A stretch of DNA of 64,000 nucleotides from a virus: positions 28,761-92,760 of the IMG/VR virus record IMGVR_UViG_3300019760_000006; one strand, written 5' to 3'. Below the pieces are notes generated by a model. The model did not search any database and was not told the origin of the DNA. It was given only the letters and a program-made list of their open reading frames with translations. Shown one piece after another: positions 5,082 through 57,222 of the stretch. Numbering within the stretch: the first letter of the stretch is position 1; each line of letters opens with the position of its first letter. A program made the position numbers and the translations under genes.

Positions 5082-5155
5082 TGGTGCTCCTGGAGAGAAT
5101 TGAACTCTCATTAATCGCTTATAAGGCAACCGTTCTTCCTTTGAACTACAGGAGC
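5082..5155 (-). tRNA. tRNA-Ile (anticodon UAU) with encoded CCA
   Basis: The minus strand folds into a full cloverleaf of 74 bases: acceptor GCTCCTG with CAGGAGC, D stem GTTC/GAAC, anticodon stem GTTGC/GCGAT (two wobble pairs), T stem GAGAG/CTCTC with loop TTCAATT, discriminator A and encoded CCA. The anticodon loop is CTTATAA, giving UAU, which reads AUA. AUA is common in this AT-rich phage and often rare in hosts, so the tRNA probably supplements translation. A strong promoter lies directly upstream. Confidence 0.92.
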
Positions 5156-11373: not shown

Positions 11374-11402
11374 TTGACAGGCAATAAATTTCAAGGTATA
11401 AT
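11374..11402 (+). promoter_or_regulatory. Consensus sigma70-type promoter before hairpin array 1
   Basis: TTGACA at 11374-11379, 17-base spacer, TATAAT at 11397-11402: a perfect consensus. Transcription would begin near 11409, giving a structured leader of about 360 bases before the gene at 11771. Confidence 0.9.
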
Positions 11403-11457
11403 ACTACCTATTAAACAAACAAATTATGAAACTATAAATATATTAGCTATAAATTAT

Positions 11458-11727
11458 ATGCCTTTGGCATTAAGTTTATCTTATAAATTTTATTCTTTTA
11501 ATTGTTATTATTAATAAAAAACAAAAGAATAAATTATATATAAATAATTTTATCTCTTTATTTTCTTTTATTAATAAAAACTTAAAGAGATAAATAATGT
11601 TACTTATATATTATATGTCCGTAGGACATAAATATTGTGTTAAAGATTTTATTCCTTTGTTATTTATTATTAATATTAAATAAAGGAATAAATATATAAG
11701 TAACAAATTATATGTACGTAGTACATA
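11458..11727 (+). ncRNA. Hairpin array 1 (leader RNA), homologous to array 2 at 49364-49573
   Basis: Six hairpins in order. Small ones: ATGCC-ttt-GGCAT (11458-11470), TATGTCC-gta-GGACATA (11614-11630) and TATGTAC-gta-GTACATA (11711-11727). Long ones with 11-12 bp stems and 22-23 base AT-rich loops: TTTATTCTTTT/AAAAGAATAAA (11489-11533), TTTATCTCTTTA/TAAAGAGATAAA (11549-11594) and TTTATTCCTTT/AAAGGAATAAA (11648-11692). The same scheme with compensatory stem changes recurs in array 2, which supports selection for RNA structure. There is no terminator here, so it is probably the 5' leader of the mRNA for 11771-12389. Confidence 0.75.
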
Positions 11728-11770
11728 AATTATATGTTATGATTTTATAATAAATAAAAGGAGAATAAAA

Positions 11771-12106
11771 ATGTTTAATAAGATAAAAATAATCTATAAT
11801 ACATTGTTGTTTATTTCAAGGTATGTTGAAGATTACAACCAATCTAAAGAACATATAAAAAGAGTTGAAAGAGATTTGTATATCGTAAGAGAAGAATATA
11901 GGAGATTGTATTTAGAACACACAAAGATTAAGAAAGAAATAAAAGCAATACAAAAGGATTTAAAACCACCTTATGATGGTGATGTTAGAGTTGTTGATGT
12001 GTTTTGTTCTGTTTGTGGTAACTACATCAGGTCTGTTGAGAGTTTAGATGAGGGTGATATTTACTTTTGTTCTAAATGCCAGAATAATATGTGCAATTAT
12101 AAATAA
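11771..12106 (+). CDS. Coiled-coil protein with C-terminal zinc ribbon, 111 aa
   Basis: Behind a strong SD (AAAAGGAGAATAAAA) at the end of the hairpin leader. Residues about 20-75 are a charged coiled coil; the C-terminus has CSVCGNYIRS and FCSKCQNNMC, a four-Cys zinc ribbon. The layout suggests a dimeric nucleic-acid-binding or RNA-polymerase-binding regulator. It is the first gene of a short two-gene unit ending at the terminator 12403-12479. Possible early or middle regulator (inference). Confidence 0.75.
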   Translation: MFNKIKIIYNTLLFISRYVEDYNQSKEHIKRVERDLYIVREEYRRLYLEHTKIKKEIKAIQKDLKPPYDGDVRVVDVFCSVCGNYIRSVESLDEGDIYFCSKCQNNMCNYK

Positions 12107-12389: not shown

Positions 12390-12402
12390 ACATTGATTTT
12401 AG

Positions 12403-12479
12403 GTTGATAGAGAGGTGTTTGTATTGATTGGTGTAAGTGTATACGTTTAGAATAAATATCTTTCTATCAGCTTATTTTA
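12403..12479 (+). terminator. Terminator after the two zinc-finger-like genes
   Basis: GTTGATAGAGAG (12403-12414) pairs over 12 positions (two wobbles) with CTTTCTATCAGC (12460-12471), followed by TTATTTTAT. The loop is long (45 bases), so termination strength is uncertain. It separates the leader unit from the morphogenesis promoter. Confidence 0.55.
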
Positions 12480-12590
12480 TGTGTTAAAATGGAGATTATA
12501 AATAGATGATAGATTTAATTCTATTGAAAGATTATATTTGGTTTGGTGTTTCTTATATTTATATAAAAATGTATAACTATATTCATAAGA

Positions 12591-24985: not shown

Positions 24986-25023
24986 TATGAACTTAAATTA
25001 TAATAATACAGGAGGTTCATATT

Positions 25024-31010: not shown

Positions 31011-31049
31011 TGTATTGGAAGTGACATATTAAATAGTTAATAGGTAATT

Positions 31050-31090
31050 GCAGTGGAGGAGTATTGATTAGTATCCATCTTCTCCACTGC
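31050..31090 (+). terminator. Hairpin after the large fibre gene
   Basis: GCAGTGGAG (31050-31058) pairs with CTCCACTGC (31082-31090); the stem can extend by two pairs. No U-tract follows, so a stabilising or processing hairpin is as likely as a terminator. Confidence 0.5.
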
Positions 31091-31135
31091 TAAATAGAAA
31101 AAAAGGAAGAAAGAAAGAAAGGAGTTATTATGTAG

Positions 31136-31540
31136 ATGGGAGATAATGATAATAGTACTTTTTGGGATAGAGTTTTAGATTATCTTTCTAAGGTTATGTT
31201 ACCTTTGTGTTTAGCTGGTGTGTGTTCTGGTGCTTTTTTTGCTTATGGTTCTATACAGTCTAATAAGATAAATGTAGAACATGTTCAGGCAGACATACAA
31301 CGTGTATCCTCAGAACACAATAGTAGAATAATGGCAAACCAAATTGGTTTAGAAAAGACAAACGAGAAGGTGCATAAAATAGAGGTTCTTTGCGAAAATA
31401 TGTATCGAACTTTGGATAATATAGAAGAGAGAATGAGAAGTAACGATAAGAAAACATATTCTGAACTTAAGAATATAAATAAAACTCTTGCTGTTTTAAA
31501 AGATAGAAGTGAAAGGCAGACAGACAAAGAGATTAATTAA
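31136..31540 (+). CDS. Single-pass membrane protein with coiled coil, holin or spanin candidate, 134 aa
   Basis: Residues about 19-42 form a transmembrane helix (VMLPLCLAGVCSGAFFAYG), then about 85 residues of coiled coil. ATG TAG immediately precedes the real ATG after the SD AAAGGAG, leaving a one-codon decoy. The layout suggests an envelope protein used in lysis (Rz-like) or a structural anchor. Neighbours are a fibre and neck genes. Confidence 0.62.
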   Translation: MGDNDNSTFWDRVLDYLSKVMLPLCLAGVCSGAFFAYGSIQSNKINVEHVQADIQRVSSEHNSRIMANQIGLEKTNEKVHKIEVLCENMYRTLDNIEERMRSNDKKTYSELKNINKTLAVLKDRSERQTDKEIN

Positions 31541-31561
31541 TACAGGAGGTGATAGTAATTA

Positions 31562-31927
31562 ATGGCATATGCAGGTGATTTAAAAGTTAATTTTACAAAT
31601 CTAATAGCTAAGTATGGAAGTAGTTATACACTGAAAAGGAAGACAAGTTCTGGAACTCTAATAGACCCTTTGAATCCGACAAAAAGGTATGCAGAAACAG
31701 AAACAACACATACAATTACAGGATTTTTATCAGCTTACGACAAAAAAATGATTAACAAACAACTTGTAGAGATCACAGATATTCCTATGTATGTATCTCC
31801 GACAATTACTTTCAATGGTGATACTGATAAGATTACAGTTAACTCAGACGAATATTCTATTGTTACTATCACACCTTACACAGTAAATAATGATGTGATT
31901 TATTATGAACTACAGTTACGTAAATAA
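31562..31927 (+). CDS. Head closure / stopper protein candidate, 121 aa
   Basis: Beta-rich protein with the pattern ITGFLSAYDKKMINKQLVEI, then PMYVSPTITFNGDTDKI, typical of SPP1 gp16-like and lambda FII-like closure proteins that seal the connector. Strong SD AGGAGGTGATAG 12 bases before ATG. It is followed by HK97 gp10-like and tail terminator genes, the usual order. Confidence 0.68.
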   Translation: MAYAGDLKVNFTNLIAKYGSSYTLKRKTSSGTLIDPLNPTKRYAETETTHTITGFLSAYDKKMINKQLVEITDIPMYVSPTITFNGDTDKITVNSDEYSIVTITPYTVNNDVIYYELQLRK

Positions 31928-31956
31928 CTGTGGATACGTAAATAAAAAGGTAGTAT

Positions 31957-32379
31957 ATGGCTAAATCTTTTAAAACATTCGCAAAAGAATTAGATAAAGA
32001 GTTTGATGTTATCAAAGAGGATATCGAACATAAATACAAACAAACAGCTATTGATTTTCTTGATTATGTAACATCACCTCCACCTAAAGGGACACCAAGA
32101 GATACAGGATTTACTTCTAATAGCTGGCACATATCTCTAAACTCACCTTCATTGAATCATGTAGGTGAACCGAGTACATCAACTGGAGCTAATACAGCTA
32201 AAGCACGACAAGAAGAAAGTATTCATAACTTAGAATTAGCAACATTAGAGAATATTAGAAGTATATTTATCAACAATCCAAATTCATGGATAAGTGACTT
32301 AGATGCTGGAAGTAGTACTCAAAATCCTGGTGGGTTTGTAGCTATGGGGGGACAATATGCCGAATCAAAAATTAAATAA
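31957..32379 (+). CDS. Tail completion protein (HK97 gp10-like), 140 aa
   Basis: The sequence TPRDTGFTSNSWHIS matches the P.DTG..a..W motif of HK97 gp10-like neck proteins. Preceded by a charged helix (KELDKEFDVIKEDIEHKYK). These proteins finish the tail so it can join the head. Confidence 0.75.
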   Translation: MAKSFKTFAKELDKEFDVIKEDIEHKYKQTAIDFLDYVTSPPPKGTPRDTGFTSNSWHISLNSPSLNHVGEPSTSTGANTAKARQEESIHNLELATLENIRSIFINNPNSWISDLDAGSSTQNPGGFVAMGGQYAESKIK

Positions 32380-32406
32380 AACAATTAGGAGGAGTGAAGG
32401 TATGAA

Positions 32407-32823
32407 ATGACAACATTTTTAGAAGCAAGTAATATAACATTATCACATTTCCTAACTGAATGGAGTTCACCTGGGATGCCAGCAACACTCGTTGCTTTAG
32501 AAGATTTAAAGTTTGATAAACCAAATGCTTTGCCTTGGGTAAGAATGATTATTAAGCAAAATGAAGGGAGAGGACAGACTATTGGTGGTAAGGGGTGTAG
32601 AAGCTTTAAAAGGCTTGGTATGATCCTATTTCAGGTGTTTACACCTCTATATTCAGGTACATATGATGGTAATGATTTATGTGAAAAGATAATTAAGATA
32701 TTTGAAGGTGAGAATATTAATAACATTTCTTATTACAATGCTTTCTTTTCACCAACTGGTCCTGATGGTAATTGGTATCAGTTTAATGGCAATATTGAAT
32801 TTAGTTTTAGTGATAAGAAATAA
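32407..32823 (+). CDS. Tail terminator protein candidate, 138 aa
   Basis: Sits between the gp10-like and tail tube genes, where the lambda gpU-like terminator lies, and shows a mixed alpha/beta pattern (WVRMIIKQNEGRGQTIGGKG, RLGMILFQVFTPLYSGTYDG). It caps the tail tube and sets its length with the tape measure. The start overlaps a tiny frame ATG AAA TGA. Confidence 0.75.
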   Translation: MTTFLEASNITLSHFLTEWSSPGMPATLVALEDLKFDKPNALPWVRMIIKQNEGRGQTIGGKGCRSFKRLGMILFQVFTPLYSGTYDGNDLCEKIIKIFEGENINNISYYNAFFSPTGPDGNWYQFNGNIEFSFSDKK

Positions 32824-32848
32824 AATGATTAAAAAGGAGAAATAAAAT

Positions 32849-34324
32849 TTGAGTGCTTCAACAAACGAGACAGTCATAAGTTATTCAGTAGAACAGTCCC
32901 CCGGTGTACTTGCAGGTTCACCAACATTTAAAAGTTTGGAGGTAAATGATATTAGCACCCTTGGTGCTACTATTACAACCACTCCAAGAAATCCAATTGC
33001 AAACACACGTGGTCCTCGTAAAGGGTCACCAACAGATCTTGATAGTTCTGTCGAATTACCGGCAGATCTTACCATTGATTCTTTCCTTGATTTCTCTCAA
33101 GGATTTATGTATTCAAGCTGGTATTCACAAGCAAAGTTTGACCCTACTGCTGTTACATCTACTGGATATACAGTAGGAAGTGGTGGTAATCTTGATGCAG
33201 GTACACTTATCTATGCAAGAAACTTTCAGAACTTAGAGAATAATGGTTTGAAAGTTGTAGGAAGTGCTTCAACATCAACAGAAATTAAAACAACAGGTTT
33301 GGTTGCAGAATCATCTCCTCCTGCTGGTGCAATGGTAGAGGTTGCTGGTTTTCAAGGAGCGAGCGGGGATCTTCAGATTAATGCATCTGGTGATCTAACT
33401 TCAACAGCTTTGGACTTTACTACACTTGGAATTATAGTTGGTCAGAAGATTTATATTGGTGGTAATGAGACAGCTACACAGTTTGCAGGTACTAATAACA
33501 AAGGATTGGCAAGGGTTAGAGTTGTAGAAGCTAATAAACTTACACTTGATCATAGAGATCAAGATTATACTACAGATACTGGTGCAGGTAAAACTATACA
33601 GATTTTTATTGGAAGTTTTATTAGAGATCAGCCTGTTCAAGATCCTAAGTTTTTAAGAGAGACATATACATTTGAAGCAGCTTACGCTGGTCTTGGAGCT
33701 GCAAGTAATGAAAACTGGTATGAGTATGCAAAAGGTAATTATGCAAACACATTTACATTTTCAAACCCTGGTCAAGCTTTATGTACACTAACTATGGGTT
33801 TTGTTGGTTTGGATACAGCAGTTCCGACTCAGACACAAGTATCAGCTACACGAAAAGTTCCTACAAGAACATCTGCTTTTAATACATCTTCTGATTATAC
33901 ACGTATTCGAGTTAATAAAGCAGATGAGACTGGATTGACATCTTATTTTGATAGTTTAGAAATTGCTATTAACAATAATGTAAATGCCCGTAAAGTTCTT
34001 GGAACACTTGGTGCAGCTTTTGTAAACATTGGTTCTCTTGAAGTAACCGGGACGGCAGATGTTATCTTCACCGATACAGGTGTTATTGAAGCAGTTAGAA
34101 ATAACTGTACAGTAAGTCTAAACTATGGGGTGAGAAACCAAGATGGTGCTTTGGACTTCTCAATTCCATCTATGACCCTTGGTGGTGCTGATAAATCATT
34201 TCCAAGAAATGAGAGTATTACACTAAGTATTACAGGTAATGCTTTTACAGACACTTTCTTTGGCTATGTATTTGGCATCACATACTTTCCATACATGCCT
34301 GGGTCTACTGCTGCTGTTTGCTAA
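32849..34324 (+). CDS. Major tail tube protein with extra domains, TTG start, 491 aa
   Basis: Starts at TTG behind AAAAGGAGAAATAAAAT. The order VISYSVEQSPGVLAGSP, PRNPIANTRGPRKGSPTDLD, ADLTIDSFLDF follows large tail tube proteins of siphoviruses. Stacked hexamers form the tube. At 491 residues it is longer than the core fold, so one or more surface domains are inserted (central and C-terminal Thr/Ala/Gly-rich parts). Confidence 0.82.
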   Translation: MSASTNETVISYSVEQSPGVLAGSPTFKSLEVNDISTLGATITTTPRNPIANTRGPRKGSPTDLDSSVELPADLTIDSFLDFSQGFMYSSWYSQAKFDPTAVTSTGYTVGSGGNLDAGTLIYARNFQNLENNGLKVVGSASTSTEIKTTGLVAESSPPAGAMVEVAGFQGASGDLQINASGDLTSTALDFTTLGIIVGQKIYIGGNETATQFAGTNNKGLARVRVVEANKLTLDHRDQDYTTDTGAGKTIQIFIGSFIRDQPVQDPKFLRETYTFEAAYAGLGAASNENWYEYAKGNYANTFTFSNPGQALCTLTMGFVGLDTAVPTQTQVSATRKVPTRTSAFNTSSDYTRIRVNKADETGLTSYFDSLEIAINNNVNARKVLGTLGAAFVNIGSLEVTGTADVIFTDTGVIEAVRNNCTVSLNYGVRNQDGALDFSIPSMTLGGADKSFPRNESITLSITGNAFTDTFFGYVFGITYFPYMPGSTAAVC

Positions 34325-34354
34325 ATTTATTTATATAAATTTATATAAGTTATA

Positions 34355-34487
34355 CCCGACTATTAACATAAAGATTTTGTGTTGATACCTCGCGAGGCAG
34401 GTGGGTGGAGTGTTGTCGGGGCACTCTGCTCACCACTTCTCCAGCTTCTACATGCTACTGAATGTAGACATCTATCCGACAAGATGT
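34355..34487 (+). ncRNA. Structured RNA with competing loop pairings before the tail chaperone gene
   Basis: In the 215-base gap after the tail tube gene, five hairpins appear: AACATAAA/TTTGTGTT (34365-34383), CCTcgcgAGG (34388-34397), AGGTGG with inner GAGTG/CACTC (34399-34438), TCTACAT/ATGTAGA (34447-34468) and CATC/GATG (34469-34486). The loop of the third has TTGTCGG (34413-34419), fully complementary to CCGACAA (34476-34482) in the fifth; a second segment CCCGAC (34355-34360) could pair with the same loop. The region is much GC-richer than its surroundings. The gene start lies about 50 bases downstream. Confidence 0.65.
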
Positions 34488-34539
34488 AAAACAATAACAA
34501 CACAACAAATTTTAAGAAAATTTAAGGAGAAATTTAAAA

Positions 34540-34998
34540 ATGACTAAGAAAGTAACTAAGAAAAATGTATATGCAATGTTTGATATGGATCATAGTGTGG
34601 AAGTAGATGGTTTTTGGAGTGAGTATGGAGATTTCCGTGTGAAGATTGCTCGTATGGGTGGTAAGAACACTGAATATACAAAAACTCTTATGAATCTTGG
34701 TAAGAAGTATCAAGCTGCCGGAAAGACAAACATCCCTGATGACAAACTTGTGGAAATTGGTAATGAGATTATTGCTGATGGAATCATTAAGGGTTGGGAA
34801 GTAAGGGATGATGAAACTGGTGAGTGGGTTCCTGATAAGATGTATGCTTACCCTTCAGGTGATATTGTAGACTATAGTAGAGAAGAAGTTCTTAACATTA
34901 TGAACAATCTTGAAGAACTTAGAAAAGATATTGAAGATAAGAGTAATGCTAAGAGGAACTATCTTAAAGCTTATCAGGAAGATATAGTAAAAAACTAA
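34540..34998 (+). CDS. Tail assembly chaperone, short form, 152 aa
   Basis: Alpha-helical protein in the slot of lambda gpG, between tail tube and tape measure. SD TTAAGGAGAAATTTAAAA. Near the end, codons GTA AAA AAC contain the slippery heptamer A AAA AAC (34989-34995), so a part of the ribosomes should shift -1 and continue into 34995-35384, giving a fused gpGT-like protein. The short form coats the tape measure during tail assembly. Confidence 0.85.
   Translation: MTKKVTKKNVYAMFDMDHSVEVDGFWSEYGDFRVKIARMGGKNTEYTKTLMNLGKKYQAAGKTNIPDDKLVEIGNEIIADGIIKGWEVRDDETGEWVPDKMYAYPSGDIVDYSREEVLNIMNNLEELRKDIEDKSNAKRNYLKAYQEDIVKN
34989..34995 (+). promoter_or_regulatory. Programmed -1 frameshift site A AAA AAC
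   Basis: The heptamer is in the right phase (GTA AAA AAC TAA). After a -1 shift the frame reads K K L T E V L S W N L R R G K and stays open into the frame of 35049-35384 with no stop. This is the standard arrangement for siphovirus tail chaperones. Confidence 0.85.
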
Positions 34999-35384
34999 CA
35001 GAAGTTCTTTCTTGGAATCTTAGGAGAGGGAAGGCATATAGGACGGTTATGGAGGGACATGCAAAGAATCCTAATCGTCCTATACCAGAAGAATTTAAAA
35101 AAGTTCCTGAATTAGGGGAGTTTCTTATTTTTTATTGGGAAGTTTTTTGGGAGTTATCAACAGAGAGACTTGTTGAATGTGGACCTATTCCTGGAAGTAA
35201 AATTCTTCAATACTCTAAAGATTTTGATATTTCATATGATGAATTACAACCAATTATAAGAGCATTAGATGGTGAATATCTGAAATATATACAAGAAGAA
35301 CGTGATAAAAAGACAAGTCCTAAATCTAAAGGAGCTTCTACGATAGAAGATAGAATTGGAAAAGCAAGAAGCAGACAAAGTTAA
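34995..35384 (+). CDS. Tail assembly chaperone extension, made by -1 frameshift (fusion of 281 aa)
   Basis: After the shift, the region from 34995 is open to the stop at 35384: LTEVLSWNLRRGKAYRTVMEG, then PNRPIPEEFKKVPELGEF and a helical, acidic C-terminus. The first in-frame ATG (35049) has no proper SD at the correct distance, which favours frameshift expression over independent initiation. The longer product (152 + 129 residues) would be the T-domain chaperone that links tail tube protein to the tape measure. Confidence 0.8.
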   Translation, partial: LTEVLSWNLRRGKAYRTVMEGHAKNPNRPIPEEFKKVPELGEFLIFYWEVFWELSTERLVECGPIPGSKILQYSKDFDISYDELQPIIRALDGEYLKYIQEERDKKTSPKSKGASTIEDRIGKARSRQS

Positions 35385-35407
35385 TGATGGAGGAAGAGAA
35401 ATAAATA

Positions 35408-38400
35408 ATGTCTAAAATAAGCGTAGAAGTAGATGGTAATGGGGTTAGTTCTGGTGTTAGATCCATCTCAAAAGATTTATCAAAACTTAGAGATGATGTT
35501 AATAAAACATTCAAGAGTTTTGATCAATTTAACTCTGGATTGAATAGTGTAAGATCAACAAACTTAAACAAACTTTCAAAAGGTTTGACAGATTTTGCTG
35601 TAGCAATAGAATTGTTCAAAAATTCTAATTCTCAATTAGCTGGAAAACAGTTATCATATCTGAATACAAACTTAAAAAGTATAAGTGATCTTAATTTATC
35701 TACTACAAGCAGAAATATTCAAAAATTAAGTAATAGTTTAGCAAAAATGTCTTCTGTTAATTTCTCTGGTAGTTTTACTGAGATAGAAAAGTTTAAGAGT
35801 AATCTGGAAGGTTTGAACTCTCTTAATATAACAGGGGTGGTTAGGAATACAACTACATTTCAGAAGAGTTTAAATAATTTAGGTAAGGTTCCTTATAAAA
35901 AGATATCAAGTGGCATTCTTTCTATTGATAAAGCATTCAAAGCTATTAATAGTACATCATTCTCTAAAGTAATTAAAGATATGGATCAATTCAATAGAAA
36001 CCTTAGAGATATGAAAAAGAATGATATTTCATCTACTGTGAGAAATCTTGGAAAGAATATTGACACTCTTTCAATATCAATGAATAAGCAAGCTGCTATT
36101 CTTGCAAAAGTTGCTGATAGAGTTGAGATATTAGATAATAAATCTAAAAAGGCGGCTATTACTACAAGTAGTTTGAATAGATCAGTTAATACATCTGTAA
36201 TTGGGTTTGGGACTTTGCAAACTGCTTTAATTTCAGTGTCTGCTGCTTTGGGTTTAACAGAATTAAAAGAATATGCCGATACTTGGAAACAAGTAACAAA
36301 CTTAGTTAGGCTTGGTACTCAAACAGAAGAACAGTTGATAAGTGTTAGACAACGTCTTGTCCAATTATCATTGGAAACAAGGACGGATCTTAAAGCACAA
36401 ACAACTCTTTACAATAGGTTGACTATTGTACAGAAAGAACTTGGTGTTTCACAAAGACAAATTGTTGGAGTTCTTGGTACTGTTGGTAAAGCTCTTGCTG
36501 TAACATCAACCTCAACACTTGAAGCCCGTGGATCTTTGATCCAACTATCTCAAGCATTAGGTCAAGGTATTGTAAGAGCTGAAGAGTTTAACTCCATAAT
36601 GGAAGGAACTCCTCGTATTGCAAAGGCTGTTGCAGATGGTTTGGGAATTACAAGGGCAGAATTAAGAAAATTAGTTCTTGCTGGTCAAATTACAAGTAGA
36701 GATTTCTTTATTGCGCTGCAAAGTCAAGCAGAGGATCTTGAAAAAGAATTTTCAAAAGTTGATAAAACAATTGGGCAAGCTTTTACCAATTTAAGAACAA
36801 CATTAATTACAACCGTTGGTGCTTTTGATGATATAACAGGGGCAAGTGGTGAGTTTGTTAAGTTAATTGATAAACTATCTACATCTCTACGTGATGTTAA
36901 TCTTGAGGCTTTTTCGAACACTCTTATCGAAACAGGAGAAATAGTTTTAAAATTAGCAACGGTTATAGGTGTTGGAAGAGTAACTGCTGGTTTAGTTGGT
37001 GGTATATCAGTTTTAATTACATCGTTAGGAGCGGCTACAACAGCAGCAAGAGCTTTTAATGTTGCTATTAATTCTAATTGGGTAGCACTAACAGCTTTGG
37101 CTGCTATATTATCAGCTAAAGAGATTAAAGATGCATTTGACAGAGTATTTGGTAAAGCTGCTGATGATATAGAAAGACTTAATAAGATATCATTAACAAC
37201 TTTGAAAGAAAGAATTATAGATGTTAAAGAAGCTATAGAAGTCGGTGATTTAGATATTATTGAAGATATGTTAGGTGAATCACCTATAAAAATAAAGTCT
37301 GCAATTTATAATATAACAGGACAAATAGATACTTTACAAAGTAAAATAGAAGGGTTTAAAGCTGGAAGCGTAATTGTTGGTAAGGCTGCATTCTCAAGAT
37401 TAAGAGATACTGAAAAAGAAATCAAATCCCTTCAAGATGTATTAGATGGGTATAAAGGTATTGAATCTGCTGTTGAAAACCTTCGTAATGAACAAGGCAG
37501 AGCAGATGCAGTAGAGAATCGGAGATTACAAGGATTAACTAAACAAAAAATTCAAATAATAGCCTCATTCACAAAAGAAAGAGAAGCTTTAGAAAAGAAT
37601 ATTTCTGCTGCTGAAAGGGCTAAAGATATTTATGCCAAATTAAAACCGCCTTCAGCAAGATCAACAGACGAATATAGGCAAGCATATACTGATTTAGAAT
37701 CAATAATGCAAAAAGGTGTTGCTGCACAAGCAAAGTTAGACTCTGCTACAGCTAAGTATGAAAAGACACTAAAATCGTTAAATACTGAAGCTGGTTTTGA
37801 TGTTGAATTAGGTTTTAAACAACTAACTCAAGATGAACAAAGACTCAAAAATATCCAGAGGAATATAGTTGCTTTTAGATCAGAAAGTTCTGAGTATGAA
37901 AAAGAACTAAAAGCACAAATTGTTCTTGGTGAAAAATCTGCTAATCTGAAAGAAAAATTAGATAAGCTTGAAAGAAGTACAGGTCAGACAAGTATAACTC
38001 TTAGAAAAGAGATAAATAAAAACATTGAAGATGGTCTTAAAGCAAGAGAAGAGCTTAATAGGCAGGAAGGCAAGGCTGTTGCTGGAACAGCAGATGGATA
38101 CAATGATTTAAATAGGAGATCAAAAAAATATATTGATCAGATCAAAGAAGAGTCAAGACTTAGAAAGAAAGCACAGAAAGATTATGATAGAATCCTAAAA
38201 AAGCAGGAGAGAGAATGGGAGAAATTCTATGATAAATCAGTAGATTTTGCTGGTGATTCTTTATCTTCACTTTTCAAAAATAGTGAAGATGGTTGGGATG
38301 CCATGTTAGATTCATGGTATGATAGTTTTCTCGACACTATATCTAAGATGATAGCTAATGAAATTATTGTGCCTGTTGTTTTTAATATGGTTGGGGGGAC

Positions 38401-41400
38401 TGGTGGTCCTCTTGGTACAATATCTCAAATGTTGGGATATCAGACAGGTGGTGGTGCTCCAGCAGGAAAGGCTGGTGGTTCAGGTCTTCCAGTCAACGCT
38501 GGATCTTTGCAATGGCTAAGTCAAAACATGCCAGGATTTGCAGGTCTTCAAGGTCTCTTAGCAACCTCCTTACCTGGGACAGGTGGGATAACATTAAACA
38601 CAATGTCTACTGCTTCTCAACTTGGCGTCCCTCAAGCAGGGGTTATAAGTAATATTGGTGGTGTTTCTTTAGGGCAAGCTCTTGGTTTTGGTGGTTTTGG
38701 TAGTCTTGGATATTCTATGCTTGGTGGTAAGTTAGGTTTACCTCAGAATGAGTATACAGGTATTACATCTGGTTTAGGTGGAGCTTTAGGTGGCACATAC
38801 GCTGGTGGTGCATTATCAGCAGCAGGATTAGGAGCTTTAGGTGGTCCTGTTGGTATAGCTTTAGGTGCCATAGCGGGTGGTTTGTTAGGTGGTATGCTTG
38901 GTGATGAAAAAAAACCTGATGTTAGAATTAGTACTGTACTTGGTCAAGGTGAGTTTGGAGTTGGGTTTAAAGATGTAAGTGGTAGTGAGAATAGGGACCA
39001 AATAACTGATGCTGTTACTGATTATTTCAGAAACACTTTTACAGAATTAGGTAAAGTTGTAAATTTTTCTGTAGAAGACGCTTTAAAAAACTCTTCTATT
39101 TATGGTAGAATCAGACTTGATAAATTAGATGAAGATGATCCTAATTCATTATTTACAAAACTTATTGAAAGTGCTTTTACAGGTGGACAAAAATCTACTG
39201 AATTTTCAGGCAGTTTAAGAGAGACATTCTTAGATGCAATGGGATTATCTGCTGAAACTTTCTCTATTGATTTCTTTAAAAACATACAAGTGGATAGTGA
39301 AGATTTAATTTCAACATTCACAAGATTTGCAAGTGTTGCAGAAGAGTTTGATGATTTTAATAGTAGATTCGCAATGCAAATAGAAGAAGGTTTTTCCAGT
39401 ACAAAAGCGTTTGAGAATTTATTAGCTATTGTGGCTGTAACAGGGGAATATACATCAGCTGTTGAAACAATTTCAGAATCTACTATAACACAAAACTTAA
39501 AACAAATCACTGAGCAATGGAATAAGTTTATCGAGGTTTTAGTAGATTCAGGAGCTACAATACAAGAAATCACAGCTATTGAGGAAAATAGAAATACAGT
39601 TGTAGGTAGTCAATTAACAGGTATCACAGCAGATTCTCTGACACAAGCTCTTGTAGGTGGTAATTTCCAAACCGTATTTACAGAGAATCTTAAGAAACAG
39701 GCTGGCTTAGTTGTTGCTTCGAATCTCTCTGAACAATTATTTAATAGTGTTTTTCAACCTATTCTTGAAGATATTGGTGGTAAGTCATCTTCACTATATT
39801 CAGGCAGTCAAGAAGATATTTCTTCTGCCTGGAATGATATTATTAAGAAAATAACAACAGCAGTAAATAATGTTGATTTGAGTCAGTTCAATGAATCATT
39901 GAGAGAGCTTGGGATTCTTACTGAGGATAATGGAGAGAGGATAAAACTCCAAATACAACTTCTTAAATTAGAAGGTAAAGAGGATGAAGCTCTTAAACTT
40001 CAAAGACAAGAATTACTCAAAGTAACCTCAGATTCTTTAAAACCTATACAAGAAAGAATTTGGCTGTTAGAGGATGAACAAAAAGCTTTAGAGAATTATA
40101 AAAAATTTATAGATCCTATAAACGAAGAGTTATCAACTATGGATCTATCACCTACAGAAAAAAGTATTTATAATATAAATAGAGCTTATGAGGAGAATGT
40201 CAAAAAGGCCAAAGAATTAGGTTTAGCTAATAGAGATCTTAATAAGATTGAAGAACTTCGTATATCCTCTATTAGAAAGGTTGCTGATGAGATAAAGAAA
40301 TCAATAGATGATCAGTTATCAACTATTGATATGAGTGAAACAGAACAAGAATTATATGGCATAAAAAAACAATACGAAGAAACCATTAATCAAGTAAAAG
40401 CTATAGAAGAGATGACAAGTAAAACATCGTCAGGATTAGATGCACAAACAAAAGCAACATTAAGCACTACAAATGCTGTTAACTTCATGAATGAAAATGT
40501 ATCTAATATTCTTAAATCTTTATTTGATCTCATAAGACAAAGTGGAACAAAACCTGGGGTAGTGGGGGATGTTCAAAGTATAGCACTAAAAGATGTTGAT
40601 TTTAGTAAGCTTTCTGGTCAAGCAGCATCAATAGTCAGAAGTATTTTTAATTTAAGTGCAGATGTATTTGGGAAAGAAATTGAAACATCATCTCTGAAAG
40701 GGATAAGGCAAAAACTATCTGGAGTTCAATCCGCTCCTTCAGAAGAGCAACTAAAAGAGACGTATGGTTTTAATTTTAGTCTTCTTTCTGAATTAGCTAA
40801 TAGCTTCGCAGCTAAATTAAAAACAGCAGGTGTTGACAGTGATATAGAGCAGATAAAAGCAAGCAGCCCTTCAACGGAGTGGGCTTTATCTAATCTTGGT
40901 TTGAAGAGTATAGAAGATATAGAGAATTTTATATCAACTATTAACAGTGTTAAAAATAAACCAACTATTGATGCTCTTACAGACCTATTAATAAAAGCAG
41001 AAAAGTTAGAATATTCTAAAGACCCTGAAGTTATTTTTCCATCTTTAGATACTGGTGGATTAGCTGAATCAGCTTATGAGCTACAACAGGCGAGTTTTAA
41101 AAAATCTTTCACTGACTTTTTTTCTGGTATACAAACAGAATTTGATCAGTTAAACATGACTGATTTAGAAAAGCAAGTTTACCAGTTACAGAAGATAGAG
41201 GAAGGGAGGATATCAAGTTTAAATACCTACCTTTCTTATGGAGTTATCACACAAGAAGAATATGAAGATGCATTACAAAAAATACATGCTCTAACACAAT
41301 CAATATCTGAGGAAACAAGACAGGTTGGTATAGAAAATATTGTTTCTGGTTTTGTCTCATTTAATAAAGCTTTAGATGAAACTTATCAAGTTTCTGGTGA

Positions 41401-46731: not shown

Positions 46732-47053
46732 TAAGAATTGTGTTTTAACTAAAGAGAAACTAAAGAATACTAATGGTTGTGGTAGTTCTTATTGGTTAGC
46801 TCGGCCATTTCGAATACCTGATTGGTTTGGTTGGAAGAGGATTTGAGATAGGCATGATTATAAGTATACTGTAGGTATATCACTAAATGATAAACATGAA
46901 TCAGATGATGAATTGTATAATGCAATGATGTATGATGCTTTTAATAATTCAAACTGGTTCACAAAACCAATTAAGATTAAAGTTGCTGAAATAGCTTATT
47001 GGTGCTTGAATACTAAGTTATCAGAAATTTGTTTCAAGAACGCAAGTTCTTAA
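46721..47053 (+). pseudogene. Phospholipase-A2-like small protein interrupted by an in-frame TGA
   Basis: From ATG 46721 to TAA 47053 the frame is open except for one TGA at codon 42 (46844-46846). The reading is IPDWFGWKRI-stop-DRHDYKYTVG, then LYNAMMYDAFNN. This matches the phospholipase-A2-like family, in which a Cys precedes xxHDxxY; the TGA is exactly at that Cys (TGT or TGC to TGA). It overlaps the lipoprotein gene by 11 bases. It may be a pseudogene, a sequencing or point error, or a recoded codon. Confidence 0.65.
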
Positions 47054-47086
47054 CATTTAAAAAAGCAACAAAAAGCAATTAATAAG

Positions 47087-47120
47087 AATGCCCATAGATA
47101 AATTAATATCTATGGGCATT
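47087..47120. terminator. Bidirectional terminator between convergent genes
   Basis: A perfect 14-bp stem AATGCCCATAGATA / TATCTATGGGCATT with a six-base loop. T-rich sequence follows on both strands (TGTTATTT on plus, CTTATTAATTGC then TTTTTG on minus). It ends the rightward morphogenesis operon and the leftward orphan gene at once. Confidence 0.82.
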
Positions 47121-47126
47121 TGTTAT

Positions 47127-49019
47127 TTAATAAGTTATATTAAACTTTGAATCATTTTTTCTTTCAATTAATTTAACTTTATAATCTTCACAAAAAGGTT
47201 CACTCCAACCGTCATAATGCTCTGAGTTTATCAACACAACACTCCCGTTATAACATTTAATAACCTCTTCTCCAATACATTGTGGTCCTTTTACAATTCT
47301 CCCTTTATCTCCAGCCTTCATTTCCCGGAAAGTAATAACTTTCATTTCATTAAAAGCTATTTTTGATTTACTCTCATGAAAAATTTTATAAACTCTCTCC
47401 CATTCCTTATTTAAATTATCCCACTTTTCTATATCATTAAACGGCCACTGGAATGTACCACTGATAAACATTGTATTTTTAAATTGTAAATATAAAAATC
47501 TGAGTCTATTGTCAACACTTCCATCTTTTCCTTCTACCAATTCATAAAAACTATCATAACAATTGTTAACTTTTAAAACCTGTTTAAATAAATCTATAAT
47601 TTCATCAGCTTCTTTAATTTTATCATAGATATCCTCACCAAATACTCTTTTAAAACAGGTTCTATTCCAAGTGTATTCATCACCATCCTCTTCATTATTT
47701 GATGTTGTCGACCAACCAGAACCACTCTTAGGAGATCTTTTGAATTTATATGATTTGTCAGTTGTGAAACTATCATAAAAATCATTTATAGCTTTGAAGT
47801 AATAAAGCTCATCAATAGGTTTTTCTTCCTTCTGCTCCTCATAAATTTCTTCTGCTAATTCATCATATGCTTGCTCACACCAATTTCCTTCACACATAAA
47901 TGTTGATGTAATAGCATAATCTGTTTTAAGAATGTTCATAAGACAATATTTACAGACATCTTCTTCAGCAAGAGATTCTTTAATTTGATTGATTTCACCT
48001 TCATACTTCTTTGTTTCTTTATACTTATCTATAATTTCTTCATAGTCTCCAATACAAAAACACTTTGTACAATGTTCATCATCAAAATAAATAGTATCTG
48101 GTAGATAGCCAACTATCTGGTATTCGTCAAACCAAATGTTTGTTATTTCACCAGACATACTGTTCAAACCGTTCTTATTTGAATATTTTATAGAACTCCC
48201 ATTTACCAATTTAATAACATTTTCTTTTGTTTTTGATTTCCCTTCCTGTAATTTAATAAACTGTTCAACAAATTTATCAACTTCATACTCTTCATTAAAA
48301 ATACAATTAATGTTACCAGTTACTTTGTACTCTGGTCCACAGCCAAATTCATCCTCTATAACAAAAGAAATATCACATTTATTTTTTGGTTTCTTAGTAG
48401 AAGGTTTCTTAACAGAATGTTTATCAACAGAAGGTTTATCAGGCATTGACGTCTTATAAGTCAACCAAGCTTCATGAAAAGCCCAAGGAACTGGATCACC
48501 ATGCAAATACCAACTATTATCTATATAAGGTGACTTACTCTCCAACACAAAGCTTCTACCAATGAAATTGTCCATAGCATTCACCCAACAAAGTCTGATA
48601 TTATTCTCATTAGCATCACTTCTAACATACATTTTCATTCCAGGTTTTAGAATAGGTTCCCAATATTTAAAATTATTGTCATCTTCATCACAGTAGGACT
48701 CATAAACACCTGCATTCTTACGCTCTGTGACACAACCAAGCCCACTCCCATTATTTTCACTACACCAACGGCAAGTTTCACAACTCTTCTTAATAGGGAT
48801 ACCAATTTGTTTGATATAACTAAGTACGAGGGGGAATCTCCCTGACTCAATTGTAACCACCTCAACATAAAGACCAGGATTATTTTCTACATAAATCAGA
48901 GTCTCTTCAAATGCTTGTGTTCTGATTATAGTTCCTTTTTTCAACATACCCAAATGTTCTTTATTATCTTTATCAAATTCATACCAAATCACAACATTGT
49001 TTTCATTGTTCTCTTTCAT
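47127..49019 (-). CDS. Large orphan protein with Cys clusters, 630 aa
   Basis: Lone leftward gene between two rightward blocks, with its own promoter (49061-49088) and terminator. Start at 49019 (MKENNENNVVIWYEFD) has GAGGAGAAATTAAAA upstream; a longer reading to 49091 would begin before the promoter. Several Cys groups (CETCRWCSENNGSGLGC, CTKCFC, CKYC) suggest zinc sites, and a Lys/Pro linker lies near residue 225. Multi-domain, no family recognised. Such an isolated cassette is typical of a moron or a host-interaction gene. Confidence 0.78.
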   Translation of the reverse strand: MKENNENNVVIWYEFDKDNKEHLGMLKKGTIIRTQAFEETLIYVENNPGLYVEVVTIESGRFPLVLSYIKQIGIPIKKSCETCRWCSENNGSGLGCVTERKNAGVYESYCDEDDNNFKYWEPILKPGMKMYVRSDANENNIRLCWVNAMDNFIGRSFVLESKSPYIDNSWYLHGDPVPWAFHEAWLTYKTSMPDKPSVDKHSVKKPSTKKPKNKCDISFVIEDEFGCGPEYKVTGNINCIFNEEYEVDKFVEQFIKLQEGKSKTKENVIKLVNGSSIKYSNKNGLNSMSGEITNIWFDEYQIVGYLPDTIYFDDEHCTKCFCIGDYEEIIDKYKETKKYEGEINQIKESLAEEDVCKYCLMNILKTDYAITSTFMCEGNWCEQAYDELAEEIYEEQKEEKPIDELYYFKAINDFYDSFTTDKSYKFKRSPKSGSGWSTTSNNEEDGDEYTWNRTCFKRVFGEDIYDKIKEADEIIDLFKQVLKVNNCYDSFYELVEGKDGSVDNRLRFLYLQFKNTMFISGTFQWPFNDIEKWDNLNKEWERVYKIFHESKSKIAFNEMKVITFREMKAGDKGRIVKGPQCIGEEVIKCYNGSVVLINSEHYDGWSEPFCEDYKVKLIERKNDSKFNITY

Positions 49020-49060
49020 TTTTAATTTCTCCTCTATATTATTGTTAAAATCTGAAATGC

Positions 49061-49088
49061 ATAATATCACAAAAAACACAAAAGTCAA
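49061..49088 (-). promoter_or_regulatory. Promoter of the orphan gene
   Basis: Minus strand TTGACT (49088-49083), 16-base spacer, TATTAT (49066-49061). The start of transcription is about 35 bases before the ATG at 49019. Confidence 0.75.
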
Positions 49089-49168
49089 CAACTATTTTCA
49101 ATCTACCATCATTTTCATGATTTCGTCATAGGTTTTTACAAACACAAAAACAAACACAATTTGTCAAC

Positions 49169-49278: not shown

Positions 49279-49308
49279 TTGACATACTCCTCTTGACAGT
49301 GATATAAT
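49279..49308 (+). promoter_or_regulatory. Promoter before hairpin array 2
   Basis: TTGACA (49279-49284), 18-base spacer, TATAAT (49303-49308). Transcription begins near 49315, just before the segment homologous to array 1. Confidence 0.85.
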
Positions 49309-49363
49309 GTATACCATTAATAACAAATAATATGAAGCTATAAATTTATACCTCATATACTAT

Positions 49364-49573
49364 ATGCCTTCGGCATTAAGTTTATGTAATAAATTTTATC
49401 TCTTTATATTAATATTAATAAAAAAAAGAAAGAGATAAATAATAAAGTTAATAATTATTGTCCTTCGGACATAAATTATATAGCTTATAAATTTTATTCA
49501 TTTAATTGTTATTATTAAAAAGAAAATAAATGAATAAATTATTAAGTAACAAATTATATGTGCTACGCACATA
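49364..49573 (+). ncRNA. Hairpin array 2, homologous to array 1
   Basis: Five hairpins in the order small-long-small-long-small: ATGCC-ttc-GGCAT (49364-49376), TTTATCTCTTT/AAAGAGATAAA (49395-49439), TGTCC-ttc-GGACA (49459-49471), TTTATTCATTTA/TAAATGAATAAA (49493-49538), TATGTGC-tac-GCACATA (49557-49573). Two small ones form cUUCGg tetraloops. Shared flanks with array 1 include GCATTAAGTTTAT and AGTAACAAATTATATG. The transcript probably ends at the terminator 49691-49765, which would make a free RNA of about 450 bases. Confidence 0.75.
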
Positions 49574-49690
49574 AATTATTATCCTAAAAGATATTAAGTA
49601 TAAATAGATTTGTAATAACTATAAGAATAAAAAGGATAGATATAAATATAATATGTATCAATTATAACAATAAAGAAGTATAAAGTAATG

Positions 49691-49765
49691 AAAGAGATTT
49701 TGTTTTTGTTTATGTTGTATCTATGAAATAGATATGATATGAATGAAAATGAAATCTCTTTTTTT
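49691..49765 (+). terminator. Terminator ending the array 2 transcript
   Basis: AAAGAGATTT (49691-49700) pairs with AAATCTCTTT (49752-49761), followed by a T run. An inner hairpin TATCTAT-gaa-ATAGATA (49718-49734) folds the long loop. It stands about 100 bases before the next gene, so array 2 may be a separate non-coding RNA or an attenuator for the replication operon. Confidence 0.65.
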
Positions 49766-49871: not shown

Positions 49872-50084
49872 ATGACAAAAGATGTATACGTTTTTGGTAG
49901 AAATGAGTGGGTTTATTGTAAACAACATATGCGACCACACCTAACAGGTTGGTGTACAGTAGATGTTAAAGATAAGGTAGGTCTTGGTATTTCTAATTAT
50001 GTTGGTTCTGAAGAAGATGCTTATAAGAAATGTAGAGAATTTGGTCTGGAATTGTATGAAGATATTAAAGGAGGTTCTGAGTAA
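49872..50084 (+). CDS. Hypothetical protein, 70 aa
   Basis: Start at 49872 (MTKDVYVFGRNEWVYC) has AAAAGGAGAAATAAA upstream; the longer frame from 49812 lacks a site. Small, with VYCKQHMRPHLTGWCTVD (two Cys, two His) that could hold a metal. First gene of the replication arm, directly followed by the exonuclease. Confidence 0.66.
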   Translation: MTKDVYVFGRNEWVYCKQHMRPHLTGWCTVDVKDKVGLGISNYVGSEEDAYKKCREFGLELYEDIKGGSE

Positions 50085-50086
50085 GT

Positions 50087-51238
50087 TTGACGAATAATAA
50101 ACAATTTGATGTAAATAAAGATTATTGGGCGGTGTTTGATGCTGATACACTTCTCCACTCTTCTGCTGTGATTTGTGAAAGAAGATATATCATTGCAAAA
50201 CATAAAGCTACTGACACACAGCAGAGATTTGACAATGTAACTCAATTCAAAGGAAGGGGCTTAAACAGCAAACCTGGGGCGTTTGGACAAGAAGGTAGCT
50301 GGATATATTCACTGAATGAGAAACAGCTTAAAACAGGTCATAAACGCTTCACAGTTGGTGAATTCGAGATTATACAAGAAAGAGAGCAAGTTGAAGATCT
50401 TCAGGTTGCAAAGGCAGCTATAAATAATCAGATTAAGAAACTATGCTTACTTCCTTGGATCAATTTCCATAAACTCAAGCTTGTTATTGGTGGTTGTGAT
50501 ACAGATGAAGATTATGAGCCAAATTTCAGATACGAAGTAGCTAAAAGTTTTCCATACAAAGGGAGGCGGGGTGAGAAGCCAATTGTATTTCAAGAGTTAA
50601 GAAAGTGGTTTATAAATAAATACAAAGATAATGTTGTCTTAGCTCAAGGCATGGAGAGTGATGACTACCTGTCGGTGTTTAATTATTGGTGTAATGATCA
50701 TAATCAGAATTGTGTTTTAATCTACCTTGACAAAGATCTTTGTGGTATTCCAAATCATTGGTGGTTTAATTACACAAAGCTGAAAGATGTTTCACCAAAA
50801 GAATTACAAGAAAGAATAGAAAATGACAGCAAATTTGAGCAGAGCGAAACTTTGCACTTGACAAATCCAATTTATATTGATAAGTTTACAGCAGATTACA
50901 ACTTTTGGACACAAATTCTCAAGGGAGATATGGGAACGGATAACATTCCTGGATTGATTGGGAAAGGTAGCAAGTTTGCTGAAGCTGCACTTGCTGATTG
51001 TAAAACAGAAAAGGAGATGGCTGAGAAAGTTATTGAAGCATATAAAGAATATGCAAATCTTCCTATTAAAGGGGGGAAACAGGCTTATACAGACATGTTT
51101 GTGAAGAATGAGTATAACCACTATAAGGATTGGAAATGTGTCTTAAATGAACAGTATTTGCTCCTTAGAATGAGGGAGGATAAAAACAGGATCATCACGT
51201 TGGATGAACATTTAAATAGGTTAGGAGTTAAATTATGA
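50087..51238 (+). CDS. 5'-3' exonuclease / flap endonuclease family protein, TTG start, 383 aa
   Basis: Removes RNA primers or degrades DNA during replication. Seen: an N-terminal VFDADTLLHSS with catalytic Asp, MESDDYLSVF and LDKDLCG as acidic metal sites, and an H3TH motif in GDMGTDNIPGLIGKGSKFAE. The order fits phage FEN proteins such as those of T5 and T7 gp6. TTG start after AAAGGAGG, within the end of the previous gene region. Confidence 0.85.
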   Translation: MTNNKQFDVNKDYWAVFDADTLLHSSAVICERRYIIAKHKATDTQQRFDNVTQFKGRGLNSKPGAFGQEGSWIYSLNEKQLKTGHKRFTVGEFEIIQEREQVEDLQVAKAAINNQIKKLCLLPWINFHKLKLVIGGCDTDEDYEPNFRYEVAKSFPYKGRRGEKPIVFQELRKWFINKYKDNVVLAQGMESDDYLSVFNYWCNDHNQNCVLIYLDKDLCGIPNHWWFNYTKLKDVSPKELQERIENDSKFEQSETLHLTNPIYIDKFTADYNFWTQILKGDMGTDNIPGLIGKGSKFAEAALADCKTEKEMAEKVIEAYKEYANLPIKGGKQAYTDMFVKNEYNHYKDWKCVLNEQYLLLRMREDKNRIITLDEHLNRLGVKL

Positions 51239-52372: not shown

Positions 52373-52636
52373 ATGGAAATTAATTACAAAACGTTTAAGA
52401 TTTATAGTGATTCAAATGAAAAACAATATATTCTTGCAGAACCTAAAGTAATTAAGAAAGGCAAGACAGCAGGTGAGATTAATGAAAATGTGATTGGTTA
52501 TTATGCAAAGATGGAAGTGCTAATTAATCGTATTATTGAGATTGAACTTATGAGAAGTGAAGATGTTGTAACTTTGAAAGAGTTTGTTGAGAGGAAGAGA
52601 GAATTGGTTGAAGAAATTAATAGTTTGTTTAAATAG
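52373..52636 (+). CDS. Hypothetical protein, 87 aa
   Basis: ATG after AAAAGGAGTATTTATTATAG. N-terminal beta strands, then a long charged helix (VTLKEFVERKRELVEEINSL). No recognised domain. Confidence 0.62.
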   Translation: MEINYKTFKIYSDSNEKQYILAEPKVIKKGKTAGEINENVIGYYAKMEVLINRIIEIELMRSEDVVTLKEFVERKRELVEEINSLFK

Positions 52637-56237: not shown

Positions 56238-56509
56238 TGAATATCCACCCACTATTAAAGGGATCTTATAATAAATCTAAATGTGATGGATGCTCTTCAA
56301 GATGTTGCAATGAAATAGAAGAAGAAGAAGAAGGAAGTGGTGTATGTTGTCAGTTTGTTTCATGTGGACCTAATCCAATGTGTTTTGTTGATAAAGGGAG
56401 GCTTCCATGTCCAAAGTGTATGTTTTGGACAGGTTATGGAAATGAAGATATAGATCTTCATAATTGGAATTTATTAATGTGTAATAGGAAAGAGGGTCTA
56501 ATAAAATGA
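56237..56509 (+). CDS. Cys-rich protein, 90 aa
   Basis: About 13 Cys in four groups (CDGCSSRCC, CCQFVSC, CFVD, CPKCMFW) with a Glu run. Likely holds metal clusters. Ends inside the Thg1-like start. Unknown function. Confidence 0.62.
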   Translation: MNIHPLLKGSYNKSKCDGCSSRCCNEIEEEEEGSGVCCQFVSCGPNPMCFVDKGRLPCPKCMFWTGYGNEDIDLHNWNLLMCNRKEGLIK

Positions 56510-57222
56510 AAAAATATTCTATCGGTAACAGAATGAAAGATAATTATGAAAGTAGAAGTAAATATAAATTGATTAGAAGAATGCCTGCGATCATTAGGTT
56601 AGATGGCAAAGCTTTTCATACAATCACAAGAAGGTGTGATAAACCTTTTGATGAAGATTTGTCAATGATTATGATGGAAGGTATGAAGTATTTACTTGAA
56701 AACATACAGGGAGCTAAGTGTGGATATCAACAATCAGACGAGATTTCAATACTTCTAACTGATTTTGATAAACTAACAACAGATGCATGGTTTGATAATA
56801 GTATACAGAAGATTGCAAGTGTTTCAGCATCAATGCTAACAGCCGATGTAAACTCTAAATGGGATTTTGAAAATAGCTTTAACAGAAAATTTGATAGTAA
56901 TAAATATTTCTTGTTTGATAGCAGGTGTTTTAATATCCCAAAAGAAGAAGTTAATAATTACTTTATTTGGAGGCAGAAGGACTGGGAGAGGAATAGTATT
57001 CAGATGCTTAGTAGAAGCTATTTCTCACATAAAGAATGTCACAAAAAGAATTCGTCAGATCTGCATGAGATGCTTTATACAAAAGGTGTAAATTGGACTG
57101 ACCTTTCTGGTAAATGGAAGAACGGTGTATTTATGTATAGATGTGAAGATAAAAGCATTAAATCAGATTGTGATATCCAGTTTATTAAAGATAATTTTAT
57201 TGAGGGTATGTATCTGAGATGA
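56506..57222 (+). CDS. tRNA(His) guanylyltransferase family (Thg1-like) protein, 238 aa
   Basis: Thg1 adds nucleotides in the 3'-5' direction to tRNA 5' ends; bacterial and phage Thg1-like proteins repair 5'-truncated tRNAs. Seen: RLDGKAF at residues 31-37 (metal Asp33), QQSDEIS (Asp78, Glu79), a palm-like core and the C-terminal TKGVNWTDLSGKWKNG. Length (238) is normal. Starts with ATG inside the previous gene end. A phage tRNA is present, and tRNA repair may help translation after host nuclease damage (inference). Confidence 0.87.
   Translation: MKKYSIGNRMKDNYESRSKYKLIRRMPAIIRLDGKAFHTITRRCDKPFDEDLSMIMMEGMKYLLENIQGAKCGYQQSDEISILLTDFDKLTTDAWFDNSIQKIASVSASMLTADVNSKWDFENSFNRKFDSNKYFLFDSRCFNIPKEEVNNYFIWRQKDWERNSIQMLSRSYFSHKECHKKNSSDLHEMLYTKGVNWTDLSGKWKNGVFMYRCEDKSIKSDCDIQFIKDNFIEGMYLR

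What the first reader, a model, noticed from the sequence alone, without database searches (positions are those of the whole stretch)
49279..49765. Hairpin array 2: second copy with compensatory stem changes and its own terminator
The region at 49364-49573 repeats the scheme of array 1 with shared flanks. The stems have changed on both sides together (TATGTAC/GTACATA against TATGTGC/GCACATA; TTTATTC-C-TTT and TTTATTC-A-TTTA with matching partners). Such paired changes between copies point to selection for RNA structure. Two small loops became cUUCGg tetraloops, the most stable known. Here the promoter and a terminator at 49691-49765 bracket a likely free RNA of about 450 bases. Both copies stand at divergent junctions that head rightward operons.
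Basis: partly seen in the sequence, partly recalled or inferred. Interest (0 to 1): 0.92.

Follow-up and report, generated by a model that had tools for sequence, protein, structure and literature searches.

The report
Duplicated structured phage leader RNA
A bacterial virus carries two copies of an RNA leader built of alternating small and long hairpins, each starting where a textbook-perfect promoter begins its transcript and each heading one of the virus's big rightward operons; it looks like a real, unnamed regulatory RNA element, but what it does is not shown.

Summary
Array 2 (49316-49582) is homologous to array 1 (11410-11736). Both fold far better than shuffled sequence (z -5 to -7). 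The homology starts at the predicted transcription start after a 12/12 sigma-70 promoter and stops after the third small hairpin; promoters and downstream flanks are unrelated. So the duplicated unit is a transcript head. In five copies of the long stem 11/11 pairs hold, and the three variable pairs always change on both sides. A 34-pair hairpin at 49691-49761 (26 Watson-Crick, 8 G-U) exists only as plus-strand RNA and runs into a U-tract.

Corrections: the 'cUUCGg tetraloops' are C(UUC)G triloops. Paired changes are weaker evidence than claimed: small hairpin 3 changed one stem pair and inverted its loop together, the footprint of DNA template switching. No second phage with the array was found, so R-scape-type proof is impossible now. 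Array 1 heads the structural operon, array 2 the replication operon.

Best reading: a lineage-specific, cis-acting structured 5' leader shared by two operons, possibly acting on elongation like HK022 put RNA. Terminated sRNA, mRNA-stability leader and origin remain open. All three perfect promoters in the 92,760-base record precede hairpin-rich noncoding DNA.

The parts
49279..49308 (+). sigma-70 promoter, TTGACA-18-TATAAT with TG before the -10, 12/12 match; predicted start about 49315
   Evidence: one of only three 12/12 promoters in the whole 92,760-base record
49316..49582 (+). array 2: duplicated structured leader unit
   Evidence: homologous to 11410-11736; fold z -6.2
49364..49376 (+). 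small hairpin S1, AUGCC-UUC-GGCAU, triloop
49395..49439 (+). long hairpin L (UUUAUCUCUUU/AAAGAGAUAAA)
   Evidence: formed only with some fold boundaries
49459..49471 (+). small hairpin S2, UGUCC-UUC-GGACA, triloop
49493..49538 (+). long hairpin L (UUUAUUCAUUUA/UAAAUGAAUAAA)
49557..49573 (+). small hairpin S3, UAUGUGC-UAC-GCACAUA; loop inverted relative to array 1
49687..49765 (+). long RNA-only hairpin (core arms 49691-49724 and 49728-49761: 26 Watson-Crick and 8 G-U pairs) followed by a U-tract; likely intrinsic terminator or attenuator
49872..50084 (+). first gene after array 2, 70 aa, unknown, with AAAAGGAG ribosome-binding site
50087..51238 (+). second gene, 5'-3' exonuclease-like (phrog_107), start of the replication operon
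11374..11402 (+). sigma-70 promoter of array 1, TTGACA-17-TATAAT, 12/12
11410..11736 (+). array 1: the other copy, with one extra long hairpin
   Evidence: (z -7.3)
11458..11470 (+). array 1 small hairpin S1, loop UUU
   Evidence: mean pair probability 0.98
11489..11533 (+). array 1 long hairpin L1 (the extra one)
11549..11594 (+). array 1 long hairpin L2
11614..11630 (+). array 1 small hairpin S2, loop GUA
11648..11692 (+). array 1 long hairpin L3
11600..11703 (+). long-range 13-bp helix 11600-11612/11691-11703 enclosing S2 and L3 (pair probability 0.92); a 9-bp counterpart in array 2 is possible but not predicted to form
11711..11727 (+). array 1 small hairpin S3, UAUGUAC-GUA-GUACAUA
11771..12106 (+). 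first gene after array 1, 111 aa, weak sub-threshold zinc-ribbon-like matches, start of the structural operon

Best explanation
The two arrays are copies of one structured 5' leader RNA that acts in cis at the head of the phage's two large rightward operons (structural genes after array 1, replication genes after array 2). Host sigma-70 RNA polymerase starts at a perfect promoter, makes the hairpin array as the first ~270-330 bases of the transcript, then continues into the operon. In array 2 it must first pass a 34-pair G-U-rich hairpin with a U-tract, so part of the transcripts probably end there as a ~450-base RNA. Most likely step, inferred only: the folded leader, alone or with a phage or host protein bound to the three small hairpins, changes the polymerase so that the operon is efficiently transcribed; put-like anti-pausing or antitermination is my first choice. 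Shown: the anatomy, the boundaries at +1 and S3, plus-strand RNA pairing of the downstream hairpin. Inferred: transcription itself, cis action, any effect on elongation. The confidence given is for 'specific cis-acting structured leader'; for the antitermination step alone it is about 0.25.
For: Homology begins immediately after the -10 (head: score 38 against shuffled 16 +/- 3) and is absent in the promoter-side 200 bases (27 against 22 +/- 3.2) and beyond S3 (31 against 26 +/- 4.2), so the conserved unit is the transcript head. Only three 12/12 promoters in the record, all on the plus strand; two head the arrays. Array 1 leads into a gene with a ribosome-binding site and no terminator between. 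Long stems: 100% of cells paired in five copies, covariation score 0.345 against 0.136 +/- 0.052 shuffled, and at most 0.136 when partners are slid. In the plus-strand consensus three pairs vary by G-U compatible one-sided steps; the minus-strand consensus has none and is less stable (-38.3 against -32.6 kcal/mol). The hairpin at 49691-49761 is plus-strand RNA only. The layout promoter, structured RNA, terminator, operon, in two similar copies, is that described for HK022 put (PMC9378689).
Against: No transcript data. The 35-kb structural operon has no strong intrinsic terminator inside it to antiterminate (only -10.2 kcal/mol at 22094). No sequence match to the HK022 early region. The minus strand of the arrays also folds well (z -7.7 and -3.5), as any set of palindromes would. 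Only two copies exist, in one genome.
Confidence: 0.5

Rival explanations
1. Passive 5' leader that stabilises the operon mRNAs: hairpins near the 5' end block exonuclease or 5'-end-dependent decay, or are cut by RNase III to give mature ends.
For: Structure starts within tens of bases of the predicted 5' end in both operons. The array gains or loses hairpin modules (an extra long hairpin in array 1), as a passive element could.
Against: Specific linkers and small-hairpin flanks are conserved between copies (e.g. AAGTAACAAATTATATG and GGCATTAAGTTTAT), more than a mere barrier needs.
Confidence: 0.2
2. Free trans-acting small RNA: in array 2 the promoter and the terminator at 49687-49765 bracket a discrete ~450-base RNA that works away from its gene, as a sponge, decoy or antisense RNA.
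For: Perfect promoter and strong hairpin with U-tract bracket the array; the small triloop hairpins could be protein-binding sites. Virulent phages are known to express abundant small RNAs (PAK_P3 sRNA1 and sRNA2, PMC4933390).
Against: Array 1 has no terminator and leads directly into an open reading frame, so a free RNA does not explain both copies. No Rfam family matches.
Confidence: 0.15
3. DNA-level element: an A+T-rich palindromic origin of replication or cruciform site, with the promoter supplying a priming transcript.
For: G+C of 0.145 and 0.174 in a 0.33 genome; perfect palindromes that fold on both strands; a small protein resembling phrog_154 replication initiation proteins lies at 52373-52636; GC skew flips at array 1.
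Against: The homologous unit is bounded by the transcription start, not by the palindromes. The skew flip coincides with the change of gene direction and so says nothing. The next hairpin at 49691-49761 is RNA-only. No DnaA box near either array.
Confidence: 0.08
4. No selected structure: chance A+T-rich palindromes kept perfect by template switching during replication, copied once by recombination.
For: S3 shows a paired change plus loop inversion, the footprint described for template switching (PMC8794818).
Against: Template switching does not explain why the block starts at +1 of two perfect promoters, nor the G-U-only pairing at 49691-49761.
Confidence: 0.05

Closest known systems
HK022 put RNAs (putL, putR)
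   Same: Two similar structured RNAs, each downstream of a promoter read by sigma-70 polymerase, each ahead of a long phage operon with terminators to pass (PMC9378689).
   Different: put is ~70 bases with two stem-loops; this unit is 270-330 bases with five or six hairpins, A+U-rich, without sequence match to the HK022 early region, and it heads a structural and a replication operon in parallel orientation rather than two divergent early operons.
lambda nut sites
   Same: Cis RNA sites near the start of phage operons with a small hairpin that a protein binds (own knowledge).
   Different: Three small hairpins per array rather than one; no N-like gene was identified among the genes scanned; boxA was not searched for.
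PAK_P3 small RNAs and other sRNAs of virulent phages
   Same: Noncoding RNAs of a virulent phage (PMC4933390).
   Different: Those were seen by RNA-seq; here no transcript is shown, and blastn of the arrays against phage records found no relative.
Large ornate RNAs (GOLLD, ROOL)
   Same: Large structured noncoding RNAs, some of them in phages.
   Different: No Rfam match at or near threshold; this unit is smaller and modular.
ToxI-type RNA antitoxin repeat arrays (type III toxin-antitoxin)
   Same: Repeated small RNA units, promoter, terminator, then a gene.
   Different: Units here alternate two hairpin types and differ in sequence; the following genes match no toxin or defence family.

Membership tests
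HK022 put antitermination RNA | Located near the head of a transcript from a sigma-70 promoter | tested here: met
   Homologous unit starts at +1 of both 12/12 promoters; transcription itself not shown
HK022 put antitermination RNA | About 70 bases, two stem-loops, sequence similarity to putL/putR | tested here: not met
   270-330 bases, 5-6 hairpins; best match to HK022 25000-40751 has E 0.16, i.e. chance
HK022 put antitermination RNA | Suppresses termination and pausing in cis, dependent on the beta-prime zinc-binding domain | not testable with these tools
   needs in vitro transcription
Trans-acting phage small RNA | Own promoter and terminator giving a discrete RNA | tested here: inconclusive
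   met by sequence for array 2, not for array 1, which has no terminator before its gene
Known Rfam structured RNA family | Match at gathering score | tested here: not met
   only the tRNA at 5085-5155 in the window; only sub-threshold miRNA-precursor matches on the 49691 hairpin
Type III toxin-antitoxin (ToxI-like) | Near-identical short RNA repeats followed by a ToxN-family gene | tested here: not met
   units differ; neighbours match no Pfam toxin or PADLOC family
Replication origin | Initiation of DNA synthesis at the site | not testable with these tools
   A+T-rich palindromes present, no DnaA box near the arrays

The most novel reading that the evidence does not exclude
A new class of modular operon-head RNA: one folded leader, duplicated and set behind perfect host promoters, programs host RNA polymerase (processive antitermination or anti-pausing without a known put or nut sequence) for both the structural and the replication operon of a virulent phage; a third, unrelated hairpin-rich RNA behind the third perfect promoter would belong to the same strategy.
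Probability: 0.15. Interest if true: 0.8.

Novelty: new variant of a known kind. Interest (0 to 1): 0.5.

Why it matters
RNA elements that let a phage steer host RNA polymerase without a protein are known from very few systems. A duplicated leader that begins at the start site of two perfect promoters is a compact, testable candidate. It also shows a trap: paired stem changes in phage hairpins can come from template switching, here visible as an inverted loop, and should not be read as covariation without a phylogeny.

Tried and rejected
Search for relatives: blastn of both arrays against 50,697 phage records gave only chance A+T-rich matches (the Clostridioides and Staphylococcus phage matches were read and lack the hairpins). 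DNA patterns for S1, for the small-hairpin frame and for the S3 flank in IMG/VR and GTDB genomes gave no array. Eighty terminase relatives, and 21 of their whole records searched with array 1 DNA, gave only short matches; covariance models of the long hairpin and of the whole unit found only the window's own copies. The neighbouring 654-aa gene has no relatives. CRISPR-array (no constant repeats), toxin-antitoxin and defence readings rejected. I considered a conserved long-range helix enclosing S2 and the next long hairpin: strong in array 1 (0.92), not predicted in array 2, so not claimed. A first shuffle scan timed out and was replaced by a composition-regressed scan.

Full report
What the window is. 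The window is bases 28761-92760 of a 92,760-base virus record, G+C 0.33. It carries terminase, portal, major head and tape-measure genes, a primase/helicase, a 5'-3' exonuclease-like gene and ribonucleotide reductase. Its nearest named relatives are distant: the best terminase matches (43-44% identity) are to Vequintavirinae such as SSBI34 and CR9. No close relative was found apart from one contig that is 100% identical over part of a structural gene (L007).

The observation. Array 2 lies between a leftward open reading frame (47127-49091) and a rightward gene starting at 49872. A 12/12 sigma-70 promoter is at 49279-49308. The RNA downstream folds into three small hairpins and two long ones, z -5.1 for 49310-49620 and -6.2 for 49316-49585 against dinucleotide shuffles. 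Array 1 has the same order with one extra long hairpin, behind its own 12/12 promoter. Its rightward operon is the structural one (terminase at 14981 onward); that of array 2 is the replication one (exonuclease, tRNA-His guanylyltransferase, primase/helicase).

What is conserved between the copies. The two arrays align at about 80% identity. Tested in pieces, the similarity is significant from just after the -10 to the third small hairpin. It is not significant in the 200 bases ending with the -10, nor in the 100 bases after S3. The unit is therefore a transcript head, which favours an RNA function over a DNA site. The genes that follow are unrelated small proteins without family matches.

Are the paired changes covariation? 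In the five long hairpins the 11-bp stem is intact in every copy, and the three variable positions always change on both sides. Between the two arrays three pairs change on both sides and three on one side by G-U compatible steps. These numbers are real but small, the copies are paralogs in one genome, and DNA template switching can write both arms of a hairpin at once. In S3 the loop is GTA in array 1 and TAC, its reverse complement, in array 2, together with one paired stem change. PMC8794818 names a compensatory change with an inverted loop as the strongest possible support for template switching.

Corrections to the finding. The loops called cUUCGg tetraloops are triloops closed by C-G: the CUUCGG string is present, but the stem pairs in the other register. 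The terminator is real as a hairpin: 34 consecutive pairs, of which 8 are G-U and none a mismatch, -33.2 kcal/mol as plus-strand RNA but -12.4 for the complement, ending in a run of U. It differs from this phage's ordinary terminators (for example 47087-47120 at a convergent junction), so its efficiency is an open question.

Mechanism. A free RNA would suit array 2 only; array 1 has no terminator before its gene. One explanation for both is a 5' leader acting in cis. The layout promoter, structured RNA, terminator, operon, with two similar copies in one genome, resembles HK022 put (PMC9378689). Size, architecture and sequence do not match, so it is not filed as a put element. Against an antitermination role, the structural operon has no strong intrinsic terminator inside it; Rho-dependent termination cannot be judged from sequence. 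I rate a specific cis-acting structured leader at 0.5, of which about half (0.25 overall) is the antitermination reading; a purely stabilising leader is listed as a rival at 0.2.

Distribution. No relative of the array was found in phage records, in IMG/VR or GTDB pattern scans, in terminase-linked relatives, or with covariance models. As far as these collections show, it is private to this lineage. The searches would miss a relative whose sequence has drifted far, because the pattern scans need exact matches and the covariance models were run only on sequence already fetched.

A wider pattern. The record has three 12/12 promoters, all on the plus strand. The third, at L009:555-583 (about 13.2 kb before the window), is followed by about 490 noncoding bases with the densest cluster of perfect hairpins of all sequence scanned (9 in 330 bases) and fold z -5.5. 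It is not homologous to the arrays by covariance model. It lies at a convergent junction, so some of its hairpins may be terminators.

Noticed in passing
L009:555-1079 (record bases 15555-16079, before the window): Third 12/12 sigma-70 promoter of the record, followed by ~490 noncoding bases with nine perfect hairpins in 330 bases and fold z -5.5; possible separate structured RNA or stacked terminators at a convergent junction.
   Followed up: partly
11426-11437 and 49332-49343: Both leaders hold a conserved micro-frame ATG-AAR-CTA-TAA about 18 bases after the predicted start, differing only by a synonymous A/G; no ribosome-binding site seen, may be chance.
   Followed up: no
long-hairpin loops, e.g. 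11505-11517 and 49509-49518: Loops of the long hairpins share TTATTATTAA, and most copies contain the palindrome TTATTAATAA or TATTAATA; loop-loop kissing between hairpins or between RNA molecules is possible.
   Followed up: no
L028:39217-40125 (Acinetobacter phage Phab24) and L124 (phage BS46): A 900-base noncoding divergent junction in a distantly related ~94-kb phage also holds several small hairpins with shared flanks; 60 of 63 stem pairs are unchanged in BS46 at 84% overall identity. Not homologous to the arrays.
   Followed up: partly
56506-57222: tRNA-His guanylyltransferase (Thg1) gene in the replication operon.
   Followed up: no
47127-49091, minus strand: 654-aa open reading frame next to array 2 without any match in PHROGs, Pfam, PADLOC or phage records.
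   Followed up: partly
12341-12490 and 46991-47140 of the window; L008:12377-12526: Other stretches with unusually stable predicted folds; 46991-47140 is a bidirectional terminator at a convergent junction, the others were not examined.
   Followed up: no
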